From IMG/VR virus record IMGVR_UViG_3300030329_003938, positions 1-28,399 of that record: a stretch of 28,399 nt of DNA, one strand, 5' to 3'. Position numbers and translations under genes: made by a program. The DNA is from a virus. Shown here piece by piece: positions 20,793-26,719 of this stretch (the first letter of the stretch is position 1; each line of letters begins with the position of its first letter). The notes under the pieces were generated by a model. The model did no database searches. It had not been told where the DNA came from and saw only the letters and a program-made list of their open reading frames with translations.

Positions 20793-21107
20793 TTATGCGC
20801 CGTGGTAGCAGAGGACTGTGCCTGAACGGAGCTTAACTGACCGGAATTGCCCATAAATTGTTATCCCCGCAGGGACAGTTACACCATCAGCGGCAGAATC
20901 ACTTCGTAAAAGTTTTTTTCCATTAGTCGCTGAATCCGTTAATTCATCCCATATGGACTTATCACTGGTGTCGCTACCATGACCATCGAAGACTGCGTCC
21001 TCAATAACAAGAATGGCGCATATGTCTTTTGCTACGCCCTCCGTGCCTGTTAACATGGTTGCCCCCGCTTCTCCGAAGGATTGTTTATCTATATTTGATG
21101 TAGCCAT
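20793..21107 (-). CDS. Small hypothetical virion protein
   Basis: 104 residues, with IDKQSFGEAGATMLTGTEG near the N-terminus and a beta-rich C-terminus (GITIYGQFRSVKLRSGTVL). No membrane span or signal peptide. The pattern, with a final strand ending CYHGA, suggests a small beta-barrel such as a tail-tip or decoration protein, as also inferred from its position between the adaptor-like and adhesin-like genes. No family is recognised. The ATG follows an A/T-rich leader (ACAATAATTAGCT) with no Shine-Dalgarno. Confidence 0.75.
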   Translation of the reverse strand: MATSNIDKQSFGEAGATMLTGTEGVAKDICAILVIEDAVFDGHGSDTSDKSIWDELTDSATNGKKLLRSDSAADGVTVPAGITIYGQFRSVKLRSGTVLCYHGA

Positions 21108-21130: not shown

Positions 21131-21817
21131 TTAATACATGCCTCTCATACCGCTGCCCACTCCTTCGGGTGCGATAGTGACTTTTGGTCTTGCTCCACCT
21201 CTATAGGAGTCAATGTCAGCCTCAAGTAGCCTTTGCGCCGTTTGCCAGTGGTATTCAGCCCTTTCAATATCGGCATTGTCTTCTGCCAACTTACCCAGGA
21301 GGCCGTGTTTTATGATCGTGGAGTCGTTCGGAAGGAACACCAAATGAGCGTCTATTGCAACGTCCACCCACTTCCGCTTCATAAGGAGCGTAGCCTTTGT
21401 GTCAGAGTCCACTGGCGATATCCTGTATCTCCTGCGTCCCCCAGCCCCAGAGTAGCCGTCATCAAAGACACCCGCCATTAATGATGTAACATCCGAAGCG
21501 GCTGTCGTGCTTGGCTCCCCAAACATCCGGTAATCGTGCCATATTGAGTATAACACTGTTGGGCTGTCATCCAGAATAGCTGCCAGGACACTGTCATACC
21601 CGACTCCCGTAGACGCATCATCAGCCGGTAGCGTAAAATAACCGCTACTCACATCCTGCTCTTCCAGGGTGGTCATCATATCCCGCCAAAAACCCATCTG
21701 GAATATACGGGGCATGACTTCGTTCAGAGCTTTATACCAATCAGCATCGGTGGCCGCACCTGCATCCAGGTATTGACCATACTTTGACTTTAAATCTCCT
21801 ACTTGTGCAGTTGGCAT
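21131..21817 (-). CDS. Head-tail adaptor / tail tubular A-like protein
   Basis: 228 residues. The N-terminal half is helical with LNEVMPRIFQMGFWRDMMTT (residues about 31-50), followed by FTLPADD and a WHDYRMFG segment near 93-100. The C-terminal half has KRKWVDVAIDAHLVFLPN and a helix-rich end (ADIERAEYHWQTAQRLLE). A helical adaptor that first senses a Trp-rich core and ends in a long helix is how gp11-like tail tube or gatekeeper proteins look, and I recall similar phage neck proteins. It would join the portal to the tail. The assignment is by pattern and position in the structural operon, so it is moderate. Confidence 0.5.
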   Translation of the reverse strand: MPTAQVGDLKSKYGQYLDAGAATDADWYKALNEVMPRIFQMGFWRDMMTTLEEQDVSSGYFTLPADDASTGVGYDSVLAAILDDSPTVLYSIWHDYRMFGEPSTTAASDVTSLMAGVFDDGYSGAGGRRRYRISPVDSDTKATLLMKRKWVDVAIDAHLVFLPNDSTIIKHGLLGKLAEDNADIERAEYHWQTAQRLLEADIDSYRGGARPKVTIAPEGVGSGMRGMY

Positions 21818-21844: not shown

Positions 21845-22693
21845 CTATTTCAAGGGATCAACCAGACCCTGATTAGCTACAATTGCGTTGAATGCTGCTA
21901 CTGCGTCCTTCCCCTGGTAAGTAGCGTAGCTAACAGCAGGCGACCTCTCACCGTCTCCCTCGTAGGAAACACTTGGTTTGCCCACTTCCACAGGGTCATT
22001 TGGTGATATTAAGGTATATGCGTCCCACATTCTAGTCGCCTGGGACTCTTCCGGCATAATGTCACTCTTCCCCGCTGCCTGCCCCACGATCCATGATTCG
22101 GGGCAGTATGCGCTCCACAGGCCGTCCTTATGGGCGATCTCTACCTGATGGTCGATATGGTGGTCAAACGCGCCTATGAAGTCAGGAGCCTCATTTATGT
22201 GGGTGTAAAATTTCTTGAATGCTTTTTTACGCAGAGCATAAGCGTGAAGCCTACTTGTAGAGGACACCTTCAGCACACCCTCGTTGTTAGTCTCTTTAGG
22301 ATTTGATGTATGCTGACCCCCTAAATACAACTGATCCCAATCGTCTGGGACGTTCTGCATGAACTCATTAACCCTTTTGAGCGCGGTCTCAGGGAAACAG
22401 GCATCGTCCTCAAGGATCAGGATGCTGTCGATGGAGTCATTGTCCTCGTTAAGGACATCCTCCACAAGCCTCCGGTGGGATTGAAAACACCCCCACGCAC
22501 CTACACTTGCTCCCCAATACTTCGGAGGAGGGGATAACTCACCCCTTACACCAGCGAAAACATGCATCTTGGAGCAGTCGGCAATCCCAGTAGCTTTGAT
22601 ATTATCTTCAAGGGATTGGAGCCTATCAGTCCTATGAGGACAATTGATCACATAAACGCGATCAAACAAATCGGTTAATTTATTCAAGACCAT
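21845..22693 (-). CDS. Glycosyltransferase family 25-like protein
   Basis: 282 residues. The GT25 layout is clear: DRVYVINCPHRTDRL (11-25), a GAWGCFQSHRRLVEDVL motif with C69 and S72-H73, and the nucleotide-sugar/metal site ILILEDDACF (91-100) with E95, D96, D97. A YLGGQH segment follows. GT25 enzymes transfer sugars, often galactose, to lipopolysaccharide or to protein. There is no signal peptide, so it is cytoplasmic. The start overlaps the end of the 420-residue structural gene by 14 bases, tying its translation to a virion protein. It may decorate a virion protein or alter host surface glycans; sequence does not decide. Confidence 0.9.
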   Translation of the reverse strand: MVLNKLTDLFDRVYVINCPHRTDRLQSLEDNIKATGIADCSKMHVFAGVRGELSPPPKYWGASVGAWGCFQSHRRLVEDVLNEDNDSIDSILILEDDACFPETALKRVNEFMQNVPDDWDQLYLGGQHTSNPKETNNEGVLKVSSTSRLHAYALRKKAFKKFYTHINEAPDFIGAFDHHIDHQVEIAHKDGLWSAYCPESWIVGQAAGKSDIMPEESQATRMWDAYTLISPNDPVEVGKPSVSYEGDGERSPAVSYATYQGKDAVAAFNAIVANQGLVDPLK

Positions 22694-23942
22694 AATACGG
22701 GTCGGCTTTACGGTTCAGTGAACTTTTCTGTAGCTTGACTTTATTTTGGAGAGCCGGTTTATGCGGGTCTACCCCCAATTCGCCAAGCAGTTCAACAACG
22801 GGGGACGGGCCACCTATTTTATTTGCAGGTGCGTCAACTACGGGCTTGTGGGGCGGGTTTCGTGAAACAATTCCAGAGTGTCCTGGGTAGCCAGCCCCTT
22901 GCAATATTCCCGCTCCCCCTCCAGGCCCGTCAAACACTCCACCCCCAACTCTACCAGGGGGAGTGCCGATAGGAGGCCCATTTATAAAAGACATCCGTGA
23001 GGATGGGCGTGACCCAACCACAGGGATATTTGGTGTGGGAGTAGTAGTCGTTGTTGTGGGGGTGTCGGCTGAATCTACGCCCTTAACAATGGTTACAGCC
23101 CAATACACATTATCGAATATTTTCTGCTCAATGGCAGATGCTCCTTCGTTTGCCGGTAGAGCTACGTTCCTATGCTCCCCAATAAGAAGGTAATAGTCGC
23201 CACTTGGACGCTCTCTCTCAATTTTACCCGTTGATTTTACCAGTTCGCTAACGGGGTTATCTTCTTCTGGGTCTTCATCTTCGTAGAACAAAACAAGTTC
23301 ACACCCGTTTACGCTACTCTCAGTAGCCCCCCATTTTAAATAAACTGACCCATACGGTTGGTCTTCTTCATCTGGATCATTCGCCGCGTCTCCTATCGGG
23401 CCTCCATCCTCGTCTGTCCTGGCCTCCGTCCCTGCCCACTCCGCATACGCTAATGATACCTTCATAAAATTACCAAACTCATCTTGCACCGAAGTCGAAA
23501 AATCTGCGGGGACATCTATGCTGATGCCTGGGATGCTTGCTTGCCCCTCAATTGGGTATATTTCTTTTTGCGCCCCATCAACATCTTGCACCTTAACATA
23601 CTCAGTAGCAATGGTCGTCACTGAAGAATGTAGCTCGCCGTAGTAACAACGGAGAACGACAGTCCCCACGGGGCGTTCTTCTGTCGCGTTTTCTTCGCTG
23701 ACAATGTAGGACTCTAGCTCAAATGGGTGGATGTGCCTGCCAGCAAAGTCAGGGTCAAGCTGGCTTGGCGTGATCTGGATTCTACTCTCATCATGCCCGT
23801 CAGATATCGGCTCATGCAGTTGGTGCGCGGTGTGAACCCAGGGGTATTCCTCATGCGCTCCATCACGCATGTTGAAGTTAAATTCCTTCTGCTGTCCTTT
23901 TGGTAAATTTGGATCAGGAAGTCCTGTATTGATGTTCGCCAT
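22680..23942 (-). CDS. Large virion protein with Thr/Pro linker and Gly-rich C-terminus
   Basis: 420 residues. The N-terminal 270 are acidic and mixed beta, with aromatic-rich strands (ESYIVSEE, YLLIGEH, IFDNVYWAVTIVKG). Residues about 288-301 are a Thr/Pro run (TPTTTTTTPTPN), followed by a flexible Gly/Pro-rich region (GGGVFDGPGGGAG) to about 370 and a short basic C-terminus. I do not recognise a family. It sits in the structural operon right after the 526-residue protein, with a two-base gap, and overlaps the glycosyltransferase. A tail-associated or fibre-like protein is likely, and the Thr-rich linker is a plausible site for glycosylation. Confidence 0.7.
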   Translation of the reverse strand: MANINTGLPDPNLPKGQQKEFNFNMRDGAHEEYPWVHTAHQLHEPISDGHDESRIQITPSQLDPDFAGRHIHPFELESYIVSEENATEERPVGTVVLRCYYGELHSSVTTIATEYVKVQDVDGAQKEIYPIEGQASIPGISIDVPADFSTSVQDEFGNFMKVSLAYAEWAGTEARTDEDGGPIGDAANDPDEEDQPYGSVYLKWGATESSVNGCELVLFYEDEDPEEDNPVSELVKSTGKIERERPSGDYYLLIGEHRNVALPANEGASAIEQKIFDNVYWAVTIVKGVDSADTPTTTTTTPTPNIPVVGSRPSSRMSFINGPPIGTPPGRVGGGVFDGPGGGAGILQGAGYPGHSGIVSRNPPHKPVVDAPANKIGGPSPVVELLGELGVDPHKPALQNKVKLQKSSLNRKADPYYGLE

Positions 23943-23944
23943 CT

Positions 23945-25525
23945 CTACGCCCCATCGGCATTACTGTTATTCGCATCGGGTGTCCTGCTCCCGTTCGGTC
24001 TATATGCCGTTATAAGTTCCCTCAAGTAACCCCCACGGAAAGGCTTTTGAGTATCCGAAATAATTAAATCGGTAGGCCAACTAGGGCCATCATTTGCATC
24101 TAGTGATGTGGATGGGTCATAGTTAGTAGCGGCATAAGTGGCATCATAGCCAGCAGACTCCCACACGGGATGATCGCTACCTGTTTGATATGTCAAAGTT
24201 ACTTCTGGGTGGAGGCTCGCCTTCACATGGACATTAAACATTGGCGTAACAAAGTCCATAGGTAACGGAACCATAGGTTTTATGTAGGTGAGCTTTGGGT
24301 ATGTTGCGGTAGCTCCAGGAGTTCCGGTAGCATCGGGAGCCTCCCATTCATCCTTGCGCCAATAGGTCTGTATACGCATTCGGGTCGGCCCGTTGTAAGC
24401 CTCATGGTAAAAGTGGGGGGATACGACAAGCTCAGACCCACCATCACGGCGTTGCCATATATTCTTCTGAAGGAAGTGGAATACAGGAGGCCAATAGAAG
24501 TTTTGGTATGTGTAGTATGTGGATACCAGGGCATCCGCAAGGGTCGGTGTATCGGCAAAATCATCAGGAAACTTTATTACCTCACGCTCCAACAGGACAT
24601 ACCAGTTATCAGATAACTGTTTGCCAGACCGCTCTATGCCAAACTCATCAATGCCCCAGAAATTATACTCAACACCACCTTCGCTATATTCAGTATTGGA
24701 AAGGCGGAAGGCGGACTCGGCATCTACCGTCAATGCAGTAGTCGTTCCAGCGTCACTGTCTGCGAAAACTCTAGTTGCTACTATAGGTTCATTAGCGTGA
24801 AAAAGGGTCTCCTTAGAGGCTAACCCACCAGAAGGGTCTACTGTCCCACTATTCCCTTTCCCGTTATACGGAAAGTCAGGATCGACATCCACAGATGTCA
24901 TGGGGACACGCTTTATAAATACACGCTGTTCGATCACATAAAGCGAGTCTAGTGTCTCGTCACCGGAGCGAACCTGCTTCTTTTCAAAAAGAATGTAGTT
25001 CACATCAAACTTGACTGTTCCTGTGTGGCCTCCCCCAGTAAGGAACGCCCCTGAAAAAGGAGTAATATCCGTGTCCCCAGAAGGCATGAAAGTATTTGAA
25101 TTTTGCCTCTGCCCCAGGGTTAGAAGCGCGACAGAATCGGACGCAGTATTATGCCCTATAAGGGGGGCTACGGGGTCATAGTCAGTCCGTAGTATAACAT
25201 AAGTCCTGACGACTGTGTCGTAGCGTGGGTTAGCCCCACCGGCTGCGGAAAACTCCCAGTTATAATCATCCTGGTTCTCGCGGTCTTTGACGTAATACCA
25301 ATCCTGAAACTGCCCCTGGTCATCATCCCCATTCTTAATAAAAGCTAACTTGAAGTTAGGAAACTTGGTCGTGTTCGGGTGGGCTGTCCCATAAGCTGTA
25401 TCGTCAGCAGTCGAAGCCGCATTAATGTTCTTACTAGCATCAACGCGCTCGACAACAACAAGGTCAGCTACCTTGGGGGTCGCAAACTCAATAACCCTTT
25501 GCCGTCTGTTGGAGGAAATAGGCAT
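23945..25525 (-). CDS. Large beta-rich virion protein, probable tail component
   Basis: 526 residues, rich in Tyr, Asp, Thr and Pro, with alternating strands and no coiled coil, membrane segment or enzyme motif. The N-terminus (SNRRQRVIEFATPKVADLVV) is basic. The middle has a run of aromatic strands (GGVEYNFWGIDEFG, VYYTYQNFYWPPV-like) and the end is Asn/Asp-rich. The absence of catalytic signatures and the size fit a tail or baseplate structural protein. It follows the two tandem paralogs after a ten-base gap and precedes another large virion protein. No family name can be given from sequence. Confidence 0.7.
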   Translation of the reverse strand: MPISSNRRQRVIEFATPKVADLVVVERVDASKNINAASTADDTAYGTAHPNTTKFPNFKLAFIKNGDDDQGQFQDWYYVKDRENQDDYNWEFSAAGGANPRYDTVVRTYVILRTDYDPVAPLIGHNTASDSVALLTLGQRQNSNTFMPSGDTDITPFSGAFLTGGGHTGTVKFDVNYILFEKKQVRSGDETLDSLYVIEQRVFIKRVPMTSVDVDPDFPYNGKGNSGTVDPSGGLASKETLFHANEPIVATRVFADSDAGTTTALTVDAESAFRLSNTEYSEGGVEYNFWGIDEFGIERSGKQLSDNWYVLLEREVIKFPDDFADTPTLADALVSTYYTYQNFYWPPVFHFLQKNIWQRRDGGSELVVSPHFYHEAYNGPTRMRIQTYWRKDEWEAPDATGTPGATATYPKLTYIKPMVPLPMDFVTPMFNVHVKASLHPEVTLTYQTGSDHPVWESAGYDATYAATNYDPSTSLDANDGPSWPTDLIISDTQKPFRGGYLRELITAYRPNGSRTPDANNSNADGA

Positions 25526-25535
25526 AGGCTAAAGT

Positions 25536-26129
25536 TTACGATGATCTACCAAGGACTACGACATTAAGTTCATCGGCTCCTCCGGCAGATGTAGGGTTAA
25601 CCCCAAAAGTAATTTTAAGTGTGCTGGATCCAGGGGCGATATGTGGAACCCACATAATAGATTTTACATCAGAACCGCCAGTAGAGAACTCGAACTTAGG
25701 AACTACAGTTACATCCGTAGTGGCTCCTTCTTCTATCATTATATTAGAAGTGTGCTTAGACGGGTTGGTGTAGCACATAACTGCTACTATCCGCCCCGTG
25801 GTCGCGTTTAAACCCGTAGCATCATTTCCTTCAGCGTCTTGAGCCTTGGTGCTAGAAGAAGACCTATTTGTTGCTGTTGCATTGCTCAATGTAATAGCTG
25901 CCGTACTGAAGTTGAGCGTAACTACTCCATCTACGTCAGCACCCGCAGAACCGTTGCAGACAGCAGTAAAAGTGTATAGCACATCGGCTCCAGGTTCATT
26001 CAAACCTCCTCCTATTGAAGGCTGGAAAGAAGCACCTACTTTAGGGTTGGTAAGAGCATCAGGACGAGTAGAGGCAATCGTAGCCTGTAACTGCTGTCGG
26101 ACAAGTATGCCGGATAAATTCTGAGCCAT
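25536..26129 (-). CDS. Virion protein, second of two tandem paralogs
   Basis: 197 residues. It begins MAQNLSGILVRQQLQATIAS and ends ADELNVVVLGRSS; the core is Ser/Thr/Gly-rich beta structure. About half of the first 42 residues and much of the C-terminal 50 (TGGSDVK, PHIAPG, DELNVVVLG) match the neighbouring 194-residue gene. No known domain is recognised. Small beta proteins this near the capsid gene are often head decoration, head-tail completion or fibre-like proteins. It is five bases after its paralog, so the pair arose by local duplication. Confidence 0.78.
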   Translation of the reverse strand: MAQNLSGILVRQQLQATIASTRPDALTNPKVGASFQPSIGGGLNEPGADVLYTFTAVCNGSAGADVDGVVTLNFSTAAITLSNATATNRSSSSTKAQDAEGNDATGLNATTGRIVAVMCYTNPSKHTSNIMIEEGATTDVTVVPKFEFSTGGSDVKSIMWVPHIAPGSSTLKITFGVNPTSAGGADELNVVVLGRSS

Positions 26130-26134
26130 TTTTC

Positions 26135-26719
26135 TTATGCGGATTCGCCTAATACGACCACGTTGAGTTCATCTGCGGTTTGTGCAAAACTAATTTCGAG
26201 CCTTAAATCGCTAGGAGCTACATGGGGAGTTACCAGTAAAGTTTTCACCTGTGAGCCTCCTGTGGGGAATGTAAATACCGGTATAGTAAACAGACCTGTA
26301 TCACCACCTTCATCGGAATCAGATACCGTAATATTCCCCCTATGCTCATTGGGGTTTGTATACATAAAAATAGATACAATACGACCATTAGAAGCATGGA
26401 GACTAGCTGCGGCATTGCCTTCAGCATCTAAATGCGCCCCAGAAGAATTCCTGTTGGTTACGGTGGGAGAACCCGTAAGTGCTGACGTACCTGCCTGTAA
26501 GTCTAATATTACTTTATCGGTTGAGGAACTACCAGATGATCCACTGGCAGTAGCCTTAAATGCATATATTACATCCGCATCTGGGCTGGATGTGCCTCCG
26601 GTAATTGTGGGGTTAAAATGTTTACCGACAGAAAGGTTAACAAGCGTATTGGAACGGGAAGCCGCCATCGTCCCCTGTATCTGCTGTCTGAGGACTATGT
26701 TGGATAGGTTATGCGCCAT
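26135..26719 (-). CDS. Virion protein, first of two tandem paralogs
   Basis: 194 residues, MAHNLSNIVLRQQIQGTMAA at the N-terminus and ADELNVVVLGESA at the end. It aligns along its whole length with the next gene, with differences mainly in the Ser/Gly-rich middle. The composition points to a beta-sandwich with no catalytic motif. It follows the 117-residue head-associated gene with its ATG overlapping nothing and a weak AGG nine bases upstream. Role as decoration, completion or tail protein is inferred from place and composition only. Confidence 0.78.
   Translation of the reverse strand: MAHNLSNIVLRQQIQGTMAASRSNTLVNLSVGKHFNPTITGGTSSPDADVIYAFKATASGSSGSSSTDKVILDLQAGTSALTGSPTVTNRNSSGAHLDAEGNAAASLHASNGRIVSIFMYTNPNEHRGNITVSDSDEGGDTGLFTIPVFTFPTGGSQVKTLLVTPHVAPSDLRLEISFAQTADELNVVVLGESA

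What the first reader, a model, noticed from the sequence alone, without database searches (positions are those of the whole stretch)
21845..23942. GT25 glycosyltransferase translationally tied to a Thr/Pro/Gly-rich virion protein
The enzyme gene overlaps the end of a structural gene whose product contains a Thr-rich linker followed by a Gly/Pro-rich tail. Members of GT25 glycosylate lipopolysaccharide in bacteria and collagen in animals. A dedicated enzyme-substrate pair that glycosylates the particle is an attractive, untested idea.
Basis: inference. Interest (0 to 1): 0.5.

Follow-up and report, generated by a model that had tools for sequence, protein, structure and literature searches.

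The report
Phage enzyme likely sugar-coats its particle
A marine phage carries a sugar-attaching enzyme right behind a gene for a likely particle protein with a floppy, sugar-acceptor-like tail, and related enzymes in very different phages often sit behind serine- or threonine-rich proteins, which suggests an overlooked way for phages to decorate their own particles with sugars.

Summary
A GT25 glycosyltransferase gene (21845-22693, minus strand) overlaps by 14 nt the end of a 420-residue gene with a Thr6 run and a Gly/Pro-rich, predicted-disordered tail. The next gene is predicted to fold like a podovirus head-tail adaptor, so the pair lies inside a structural module.

Comparison partly supports the pairing idea and widens it. 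Of 14 clusters of phage GT25 loci, 9 have (in most members) a Ser/Thr-run protein within 3.5 kb upstream, against 1 of 13 downstream. One of these clusters extends into Planctomycetota genomes (28 of 34 loci upstream). Eighteen GT25 loci of bacterial genomes, chosen outside the phage-type group, give 0. In two relatives a GT9 enzyme takes the GT25 place, and some relatives add further sugar genes. Best reading: a dedicated protein O-glycosyltransferase acting on the low-complexity segment of a virion protein.

Against it: the window's own tail is only moderately Ser/Thr-rich and its cluster is among the 5 without a Ser/Thr run; 5 of 34 GT25-bearing slot proteins have neither tail nor Ser-rich insert; poly-Ser genes found without reference to GT25 had none nearby (0 of 29); phylogenetic independence is low. 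No glycan has been shown.

The parts
21845..22693 (-). GT25 glycosyltransferase, 282 aa (GT25 core of about 225 residues plus a C-terminal extension that, among the five rows of A2, is shared with L001 and L002)
   Evidence: PF01755 38.8 bits; alignment A2; invariant residues intact and dN/dS 0.10-0.14
22403..22411 (-). E95-D96-D97, the DXD-like motif, invariant in 38 of 38 aligned phage GT25 rows
22680..23942 (-). 420-aa slot protein, proposed virion protein and glycan acceptor
   Evidence: ORF; AF2 model; homologues in the same place of relatives
23064..23747 (-). conserved beta domain of the slot protein, about residues 66-293 (the ordered part of the model runs to about 300)
   Evidence: AF2; profile-profile match to the L105-type slot protein, probability 96.5; no PDB or BFVD fold match at E 0.001
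23022..23063 (-). Thr-rich linker TPTTTTTTPTPNIP, residues 294-307, at the place where the L105-type relatives carry Ser-rich runs
22830..23021 (-). Gly/Pro-rich disordered tail, residues 308-371
   Evidence: pLDDT under 50
22680..22829 (-). C-terminal peptide, residues 372-420 and stop, conserved in L001 and loosely in L002
22680..22693 (-). 14-nt overlap of the slot gene's end and the GT25 start
   Evidence: L001 has the same 14 nt, L002 17 nt
21131..21817 (-). head-tail adaptor-like protein, 228 aa (marker S228)
   Evidence: AF2 pLDDT 79.7; Foldseek to podovirus tail-complex proteins, best E 1.4e-5
23945..25525 (-). 526-aa conserved protein that precedes the slot gene (marker S526), function unknown
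   Evidence: of 33 family members one PHROG match at E 0.0069

Best explanation
The GT25 enzyme is a dedicated protein O-glycosyltransferase of the phage's structural module. It is made together with the 420-residue slot protein and transfers a first sugar from a nucleotide-sugar donor to Ser/Thr hydroxyls in the low-complexity segment that follows the slot protein's beta domain. In this phage that segment is the Thr/Pro/Gly-rich tail; in other relatives it is a Ser run. In some relatives further enzymes encoded behind it would extend or modify the glycan. The finished particle would carry a flexible glycosylated brush near the head-tail adaptor, which could protect the tail from proteases, tune adsorption or mask the particle. 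Shown by sequence: the genes, their order, an intact active-site motif, a tail predicted to be disordered, and the association across phages. Inferred: that the acceptor is the slot protein, that Ser/Thr is modified, that the protein is in the virion, and the benefit.
For: 1. Position: the order S526 - slot - GT25 - adaptor is kept in the close GT25-bearing relatives, and the adaptor is recognised by fold. 2. Podoviruses, loci fetched by S526 or S228: a slot gene with at least 55% S+T in 30 residues occurs in 13 of 28 GT25+ loci, 2 of 35 GT25- loci and 3 of 397 other ORFs. 3. Breadth and direction: 9 of 14 GT25 clusters have a Ser/Thr-run gene upstream in most members, 1 of 13 downstream. 4. 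Planctomycetota: 28 of 34 loci upstream, 1 of 34 downstream (3 of the 34 hold no downstream DNA). Tail context by tape-measure matches in 2 of 3 far loci tried (L480, L158; not L446). 5. Comparison: 0 of 18 GT25 loci of bacterial genomes outside the phage-type group have any ORF reaching 0.5. 6. Swapping: the protein just upstream of GT25 can be small, beta-propeller-like by inspection, or Ig-like (PF16403) and still carries Ser-rich runs. 7. Replacement: GT9 enzymes (PF01075, E 2.1e-10 and 1e-8) stand, on the opposite strand, in the GT25 place of L408 and L425 between poly-Ser and adaptor genes; both loci match the S526 and S228 profiles. 8. Glycan cassettes in some relatives: Gly_transf_sug, second GT25, GT29 match, UDP-galactopyranose mutase; GT25-sulfotransferase fusion. 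9. A 548-kb contig has a TibC-type protein O-heptosyltransferase (TIGR04414, 293 bits) on the same 10-kb stretch as poly-Ser proteins. 10. Precedent: sdgA/sdgB lie beside genes of their Ser-Asp-repeat substrates (PMC3794999, passages).
Against: The window's linker is not a Ser run and its S+T peak of 0.43 is only moderately high; the cluster of the window and L002 is among the 5 of 14 without a Ser/Thr run. GT25 with neither tail nor Ser-rich insert: 5 of 34 rows. Short Thr/Pro tails without GT25 in the record: L011, L029. On the slot-domain tree (a quick tree with several long-branch warnings) the extension changes three times and gives two or three independent pairs, not significant. Poly-Ser genes found without reference to GT25 had no GT25 in the locus: 0 of 29 (7 of the 29 had under 1.5 kb downstream) and 0 of 6. 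GT25s that score well with the phage profile occur in planctomycete-order genomes without Ser runs (L549-L551). The Planctomycetota set is one GT25 cluster, partly the same elements as (L446 is 100% identical to the query). Glycan-modifying cassettes would also suit changes of the host surface. No mass data exist.
Confidence: 0.6

Rival explanations
1. The enzyme modifies the host's cell-surface glycan (LPS core or O-chain) during infection, for example to exclude other phages; it lies in the late module because it is needed late, and the Ser/Thr-rich neighbour is a host-interaction protein in the same variable region.
For: Pfam describes the family as an LPS biosynthesis protein. For marine pelagimyophages, glycosyltransferases in the host-recognition cluster were read as changing the host O-chain (PMC7029224, passages). 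Some cassettes also hold methyltransferases and a mutase.
Against: Phage GT25s tend to follow a Ser/Thr-run gene, with a clear direction, while 0 of 18 bacterial-genome GT25 loci do. The globular part of the protein just upstream varies while Ser runs and GT25 stay.
Confidence: 0.22
2. The Ser/Thr/Gly/Pro-rich segments are only flexible linkers of particle proteins, common in these phages; the neighbouring GT25 is unrelated cargo carried in the same hypervariable spot.
For: Poly-Ser genes occur in phage contexts without GT25: 0 of 29. The tail and GT25 traits are phylogenetically clustered.
Against: Upstream against downstream asymmetry, 53 of 211 ORFs against 5 of 254; 3 of 397 background ORFs reach 0.55; other GT families recur beside Ser-rich proteins.
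Confidence: 0.13
3. The enzyme glycosylates another virion protein, or the folded beta domain, and not the low-complexity tail.
For: Five of 34 GT25-bearing slot proteins have neither tail nor Ser-rich insert; the slot gene is adjacent in those loci too.
Against: Extensions of at least 100 residues after the domain in 27 of 34 GT25-bearing slot proteins and in 2 of 15 without GT25.
Confidence: 0.2

Closest known systems
Virion glycosylation of mycobacteriophages (Che8, Corndog, Myrna; Freeman et al. 2023)
   Same: Phage-encoded glycosyltransferases glycosylate capsid and tail-tube subunits, with glycans at their C-termini. Known here only through passages of PMC12619734, PMC12363180 and PMC11256854; the paper itself is not held.
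   Different: No GT25, Ser/Thr-run acceptor or adaptor-side gene pair is mentioned in those passages.
Staphylococcal SdgA/SdgB acting on Ser-Asp-repeat adhesins
   Same: Glycosyltransferase genes beside genes for low-complexity Ser-rich proteins; two enzymes act in sequence; glycans protect against proteolysis (PMC3794999, passages).
   Different: Cell-wall adhesins and not virions; another GT family (recalled as GT4; no call).
TibC/Aah autotransporter O-heptosyltransferases
   Same: Dedicated protein O-glycosyltransferase encoded next to its substrate (TibA and AIDA: PMC3794999, passage); a family member (TIGR04414 over its cut-off) lies near poly-Ser proteins in the 548-kb contig of L233.
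   Different: GT9-like heptosyltransferases (relation to GT9 recalled), not GT25.
COLGALT1 procollagen galactosyltransferase and mimivirus R655
   Same: Best sequence matches of the GT25 profile in the PDB, E 2.7e-5 and 0.0023; COLGALT1 acts on protein.
   Different: Its acceptor is hydroxylysine in collagen (recalled); the window's tail is not collagen-like.

Membership tests
Glycosyltransferase family 25 (PF01755) | score over the curated cut-off | tested here: met
   38.8 bits against 24
Glycosyltransferase family 25 (PF01755) | intact DXD-like motif and conserved core | tested here: met
   EDD 95-97 and the other columns invariant in 38 of 38 aligned rows
Glycosyltransferase family 25 (PF01755) | transfer activity | not testable with these tools
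   needs an assay
Dedicated GT with Ser-rich substrate (SdgA/B, TibC type) | GT gene next to the gene of a Ser/Thr-rich low-complexity protein | tested here: inconclusive
   met in many relatives; in the window the neighbour is Thr/Pro/Gly-rich, S+T peak 0.43
Dedicated GT with Ser-rich substrate (SdgA/B, TibC type) | the neighbour is the glycosylated substrate | not testable with these tools
   needs mass spectrometry
Phage virion glycosylation (mycobacteriophage type) | acceptor is a virion subunit | tested here: inconclusive
   gene two places before an adaptor-like gene, but the protein has no known family or fold
Phage virion glycosylation (mycobacteriophage type) | glycan on a C-terminal segment | not testable with these tools
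   needs mass spectrometry
Temperate-phage O-antigen conversion (gtrABC type, recalled) | flippase and bactoprenol glucosyltransferase beside the GT | not tested
   the immediate neighbours are the slot and adaptor genes; no search for gtrA/gtrB was made

The most novel reading that the evidence does not exclude
An unrecognised, widespread phage system for protein O-glycosylation: virion or tail-module proteins carry Ser/Thr-run acceptor segments, in one group with a recurring tag like G-S-x-K-S-x-S-S-V-S-E, and exchangeable priming enzymes (GT25 most often seen here, GT9 in two loci) plus variable elongation genes (second GTs, sialyltransferase-like, UDP-galactopyranose mutase, sulfotransferase) build diverse, in planctomycete phages possibly sulfated, glycans on the particle.
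Probability: 0.45. Interest if true: 0.82.

Novelty: new variant of a known kind. Interest (0 to 1): 0.62.

Why it matters
Glycosyltransferases of environmental phages are often read as host-surface or DNA modifiers (for example PMC7029224, passages). If GT25 and its replacements act on Ser/Thr-run particle proteins, many 'LPS biosynthesis' genes of phages would be virion-decorating enzymes, some poly-Ser proteins of phages would gain a function, and phage glycans could be guessed from gene order. It is directly testable by co-expression and mass spectrometry.

Tried and rejected
Collagen-like acceptor: rejected; no Gly-X-Y run of four or more triplets in the tail. DNA modification: considered and not pursued; it was not tested. 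Naming the slot protein by fold: no PDB or BFVD match at E 0.001 or less. Naming S526 by PHROGs: one of 33 members at E 0.0069, no function. S228 by PHROGs: one of 35 members at E 0.002, no function; the fold search named it. Named phage records: GT25 has 1 match (27.8%) among 50,697, the 420-aa protein none; the L105 adaptor none, the L105 GT25 four uncultured records; these collections may leave out records very near the window.

GT-independent anchors: the TCN run found mostly genes that are not Ser-rich in the longest frame (6 of 120 loci classed Ser). From I judge L220 and L296 antisense artefacts and L263 and L233 real; L274 and L294 were not looked at. The AGY run gave 29 of 120, none with GT25. 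'Poly-Ser predicts GT25' is therefore rejected; only the reverse tendency is seen. L042's 635-aa neighbour as a GT25: not supported (hhalign probability 2.4; Stealth_CR4 E 0.044). PF01755 in 35 GT25- records gave 0, but that search's built-in controls were silent. The A2 profile on 24 records found all five known positives and L039, and 0 of the 18 others. The slot-domain profile does not match in L408 or L425 at E 0.001, so their slot proteins are placed by gene order only.

Choices that matter: the 0.55 and 0.6 thresholds were set after seeing the data. One search kept the best 80 of 84 GT25 relatives. One search includes two loci fetched by GT25 (L161, L162), skips L029 (775 nt downstream), and counts L039 as GT25+ because one search found the gene beyond the locus end. 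In one search, 7 of 48 loci were left out for lack of upstream DNA; of the 41 read, 34 were Planctomycetota (several from one genome; L446 is 100% identical to the query) and 7 were other bacteria (0 of 7 positive); the p values ignore relatedness. The 18 wide comparison loci: 10 genomes of the proteobacterial searches (8 of the 16 matched genomes, 2) and 8 of the 15 matched genomes; phage-type loci of those calls (L497, L500-L502, L529) were left out, and they are the 5 of 42 profile-found GT loci with S+T of at least 0.6 upstream. That the 18 are not prophages was not tested.

Literature: Freeman et al. 2023 is not held. I saw listings only for the searches: 20 of 112 papers, 0, 13 of 13, 18 of 18, 10 of 31, 1 of 1, 10 of 121, 2 of 2. 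No listed title or abstract start describes GT25 beside Ser-run phage proteins; papers further down the lists and most subscription papers were not seen.

Full report
What is there. The window is a 28,399-base virus record. On its minus strand, a 420-aa gene (22680-23942) overlaps by 14 nt a 282-aa gene (21845-22693). The latter is GT25 by Pfam, over the cut-off, with the columns that are invariant in 38 phage GT25 rows intact and dN/dS of 0.10 and 0.14 against two relatives. In the PDB its profile matches COLGALT1 entries (best E 2.7e-5) and mimivirus R655 (E 0.0023). The 420-aa protein has no match in Pfam, PHROGs or the phage records.

Structural context. The gene after the enzyme (228 aa) gives an AF2 model (pLDDT 79.7) that matches tail-complex proteins of podoviruses: Pa223, cyanophage A4, SU10, KHP30, GP4, N4 (E 1.4e-5 to 2.8e-4), and T7 weakly (E 0.055); I read these as head-tail adaptors. 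Terminase and endolysin matches elsewhere in the window agree with a tailed phage. The 420-aa model has a beta domain and a low-confidence tail and no fold match.

Relatives. Close GT25-bearing relatives keep the order S526 - slot - GT25 - adaptor. L001 (GT 94%; its slot gene is cut by the contig end) and L002 (GT 81%, slot 44%) share the overlap; L001, and loosely L002, share the C-terminal peptide. A related slot domain is present in a wider marine group, where it is followed by a Ser-rich run at the matching place: profile-profile comparison of the two slot families gives probability 96.5, E 7e-10 for a single comparison; compare NVYWAVTIV then Thr-rich in the window with DVYWITAF then Ser-rich in L105. 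In that wider group a second gene, whose product often ends in runs of Ser, Ser-Thr or Ser-Asp, usually overlaps the GT25 start by 4 nt. Its globular part varies: small, beta-propeller-like by inspection (no Pfam match), or Ig-like (PF16403, E 6.7e-27 in L131).

Statistics within the podoviruses. In 63 loci fetched by S526 or S228 and not by GT25 (the window included), S+T of at least 55% over 30 residues in a slot gene occurs in 13 of 28 GT25+ and 2 of 35 GT25- loci (Fisher p 2.2e-4); 3 of 397 other ORFs reach it. The two exceptions, L034 and L042, have other large genes in the GT place, whose nature is uncertain: a methyltransferase domain in one, a sub-threshold Stealth_CR4 match in the other. 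By domain, 27 of 34 GT25+ and 2 of 15 GT25- slot proteins have at least 100 residues after the domain (two of the GT25+ loci, L161 and L162, were fetched by GT25). Two more GT25+ (L020, L055) have an internal SEESSSEESSS insert. Five GT25+ rows have neither. On the tree the extension changes three times and GT25 seven times; the independent pairs go the same way or do not differ, but they are too few for significance. Relatedness could therefore explain much of this part.

Statistics across GT25. Among 71 unique phage GT25 loci with 1.5 kb or more upstream (14 clusters at 60% identity), 9 of 14 clusters have, in most members, an upstream ORF within 3.5 kb with S+T of at least 60% over 30 residues, against 1 of 13 downstream; by ORF, 53 of 211 upstream and 5 of 254 downstream. 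These include GT25s about 30% identical to the window's in the best segment. The window's own cluster (window and L002) is among the five without. One branch, fused to a sulfotransferase domain (PF00685, E 4.8e-7 in L177), is found in Planctomycetota genomes such as Rhodopirellula, Stieleria and Pirellula. There 28 of 34 loci have the Ser run upstream and 1 of 34 downstream, three of the 34 holding no downstream DNA; this is one cluster, partly the same elements as. Tape-measure matches upstream in L480 and L158, not in L446, support a tail context. For comparison, 18 GT25 loci of bacterial genomes (9.6-14.5 kb each) show no ORF at 0.5 or more; 28 of 34 against 0 of 18 gives p 3e-9, without correction for relatedness.

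GT-independent look. A scan for AGY runs gave 29 poly-Ser genes without any GT25 in the locus, so a Ser run does not predict GT25. Yet two of these loci (L408, L425) match the S526 and S228 profiles and hold a GT9 enzyme, on the opposite strand, in the place of GT25. L263 has a weak GT2 match behind its poly-Ser gene (E 0.0053, under the cut-off). L233, in a 548-kb contig, has a TibC-type O-heptosyltransferase over its cut-off on the same 10-kb stretch as poly-Ser genes. Replacement of one GT family by another beside the same kind of neighbour is what a shared acceptor predicts. Most of the 29 loci were not examined for other glycosyltransferases.

Cassettes. Behind GT25 in the Ser-run group lie, in different phages, a Gly_transf_sug enzyme (L086), a second GT25 (L095), a methyltransferase with a GT29 (sialyltransferase) match (L100) and a UDP-galactopyranose mutase (L106, E 3.7e-50). 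A GT8 match (L089) is under the cut-off. The window has no gene between GT25 and the adaptor gene.

Mechanism. Shown: gene order, intact enzyme motif, predicted-disordered tail, broad association. Inferred: O-linked transfer to the tail, presence in the particle, a protective or adsorptive role. The nearest working analogy is SdgA/SdgB with Ser-Asp repeats, where the enzymes are encoded beside substrates and protect them from proteolysis (PMC3794999, passages). For phages, glycans at capsid and tail-tube C-termini are known from mycobacteriophages (passages of PMC12619734 and PMC12363180). The reading given for pelagimyophage glycosyltransferases is host O-chain change (PMC7029224, passages), which remains the main rival.

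Verdict. It is a new variant of a known kind until a glycan is shown.

Noticed in passing
L100:1242-2300: A protein with a Methyltransf_24 domain and a GT29 (sialyltransferase) match (E 4.6e-14) lies behind GT25; a sialyltransferase-like domain in a phage cassette seems unusual.
   Followed up: no
L106:3785-4777 (also L107, L140): UDP-galactopyranose mutase (PF03275 E 3.7e-50; TIGR00031 261.6 bits, under its cut-off of 303.75) between GT25 and the adaptor gene.
   Followed up: partly
L177:4872-6356 and the A9 group: GT25 fused to a sulfotransferase domain, several loci per genome in Rhodopirellula rubra, next to poly-Ser proteins.
   Followed up: partly
L233:8412-10283 (548-kb contig): TibC/Aah-type autotransporter O-heptosyltransferase (TIGR04414, 293 bits) on the same stretch as poly-Ser genes.
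   Followed up: partly
window 20793-21107 and L007:9252-9566: This 104-aa protein is 99% identical to L007's although the neighbouring proteins are about 41-54% identical, a sign of recent exchange.
   Followed up: no
window 25536-26129 and 26135-26719: Two neighbouring genes look like tandem paralogues: each L002 copy matches both.
   Followed up: no
L086:8462-9637: A second poly-Ser protein, beta-propeller-like by inspection, downstream of the adaptor gene.
   Followed up: no
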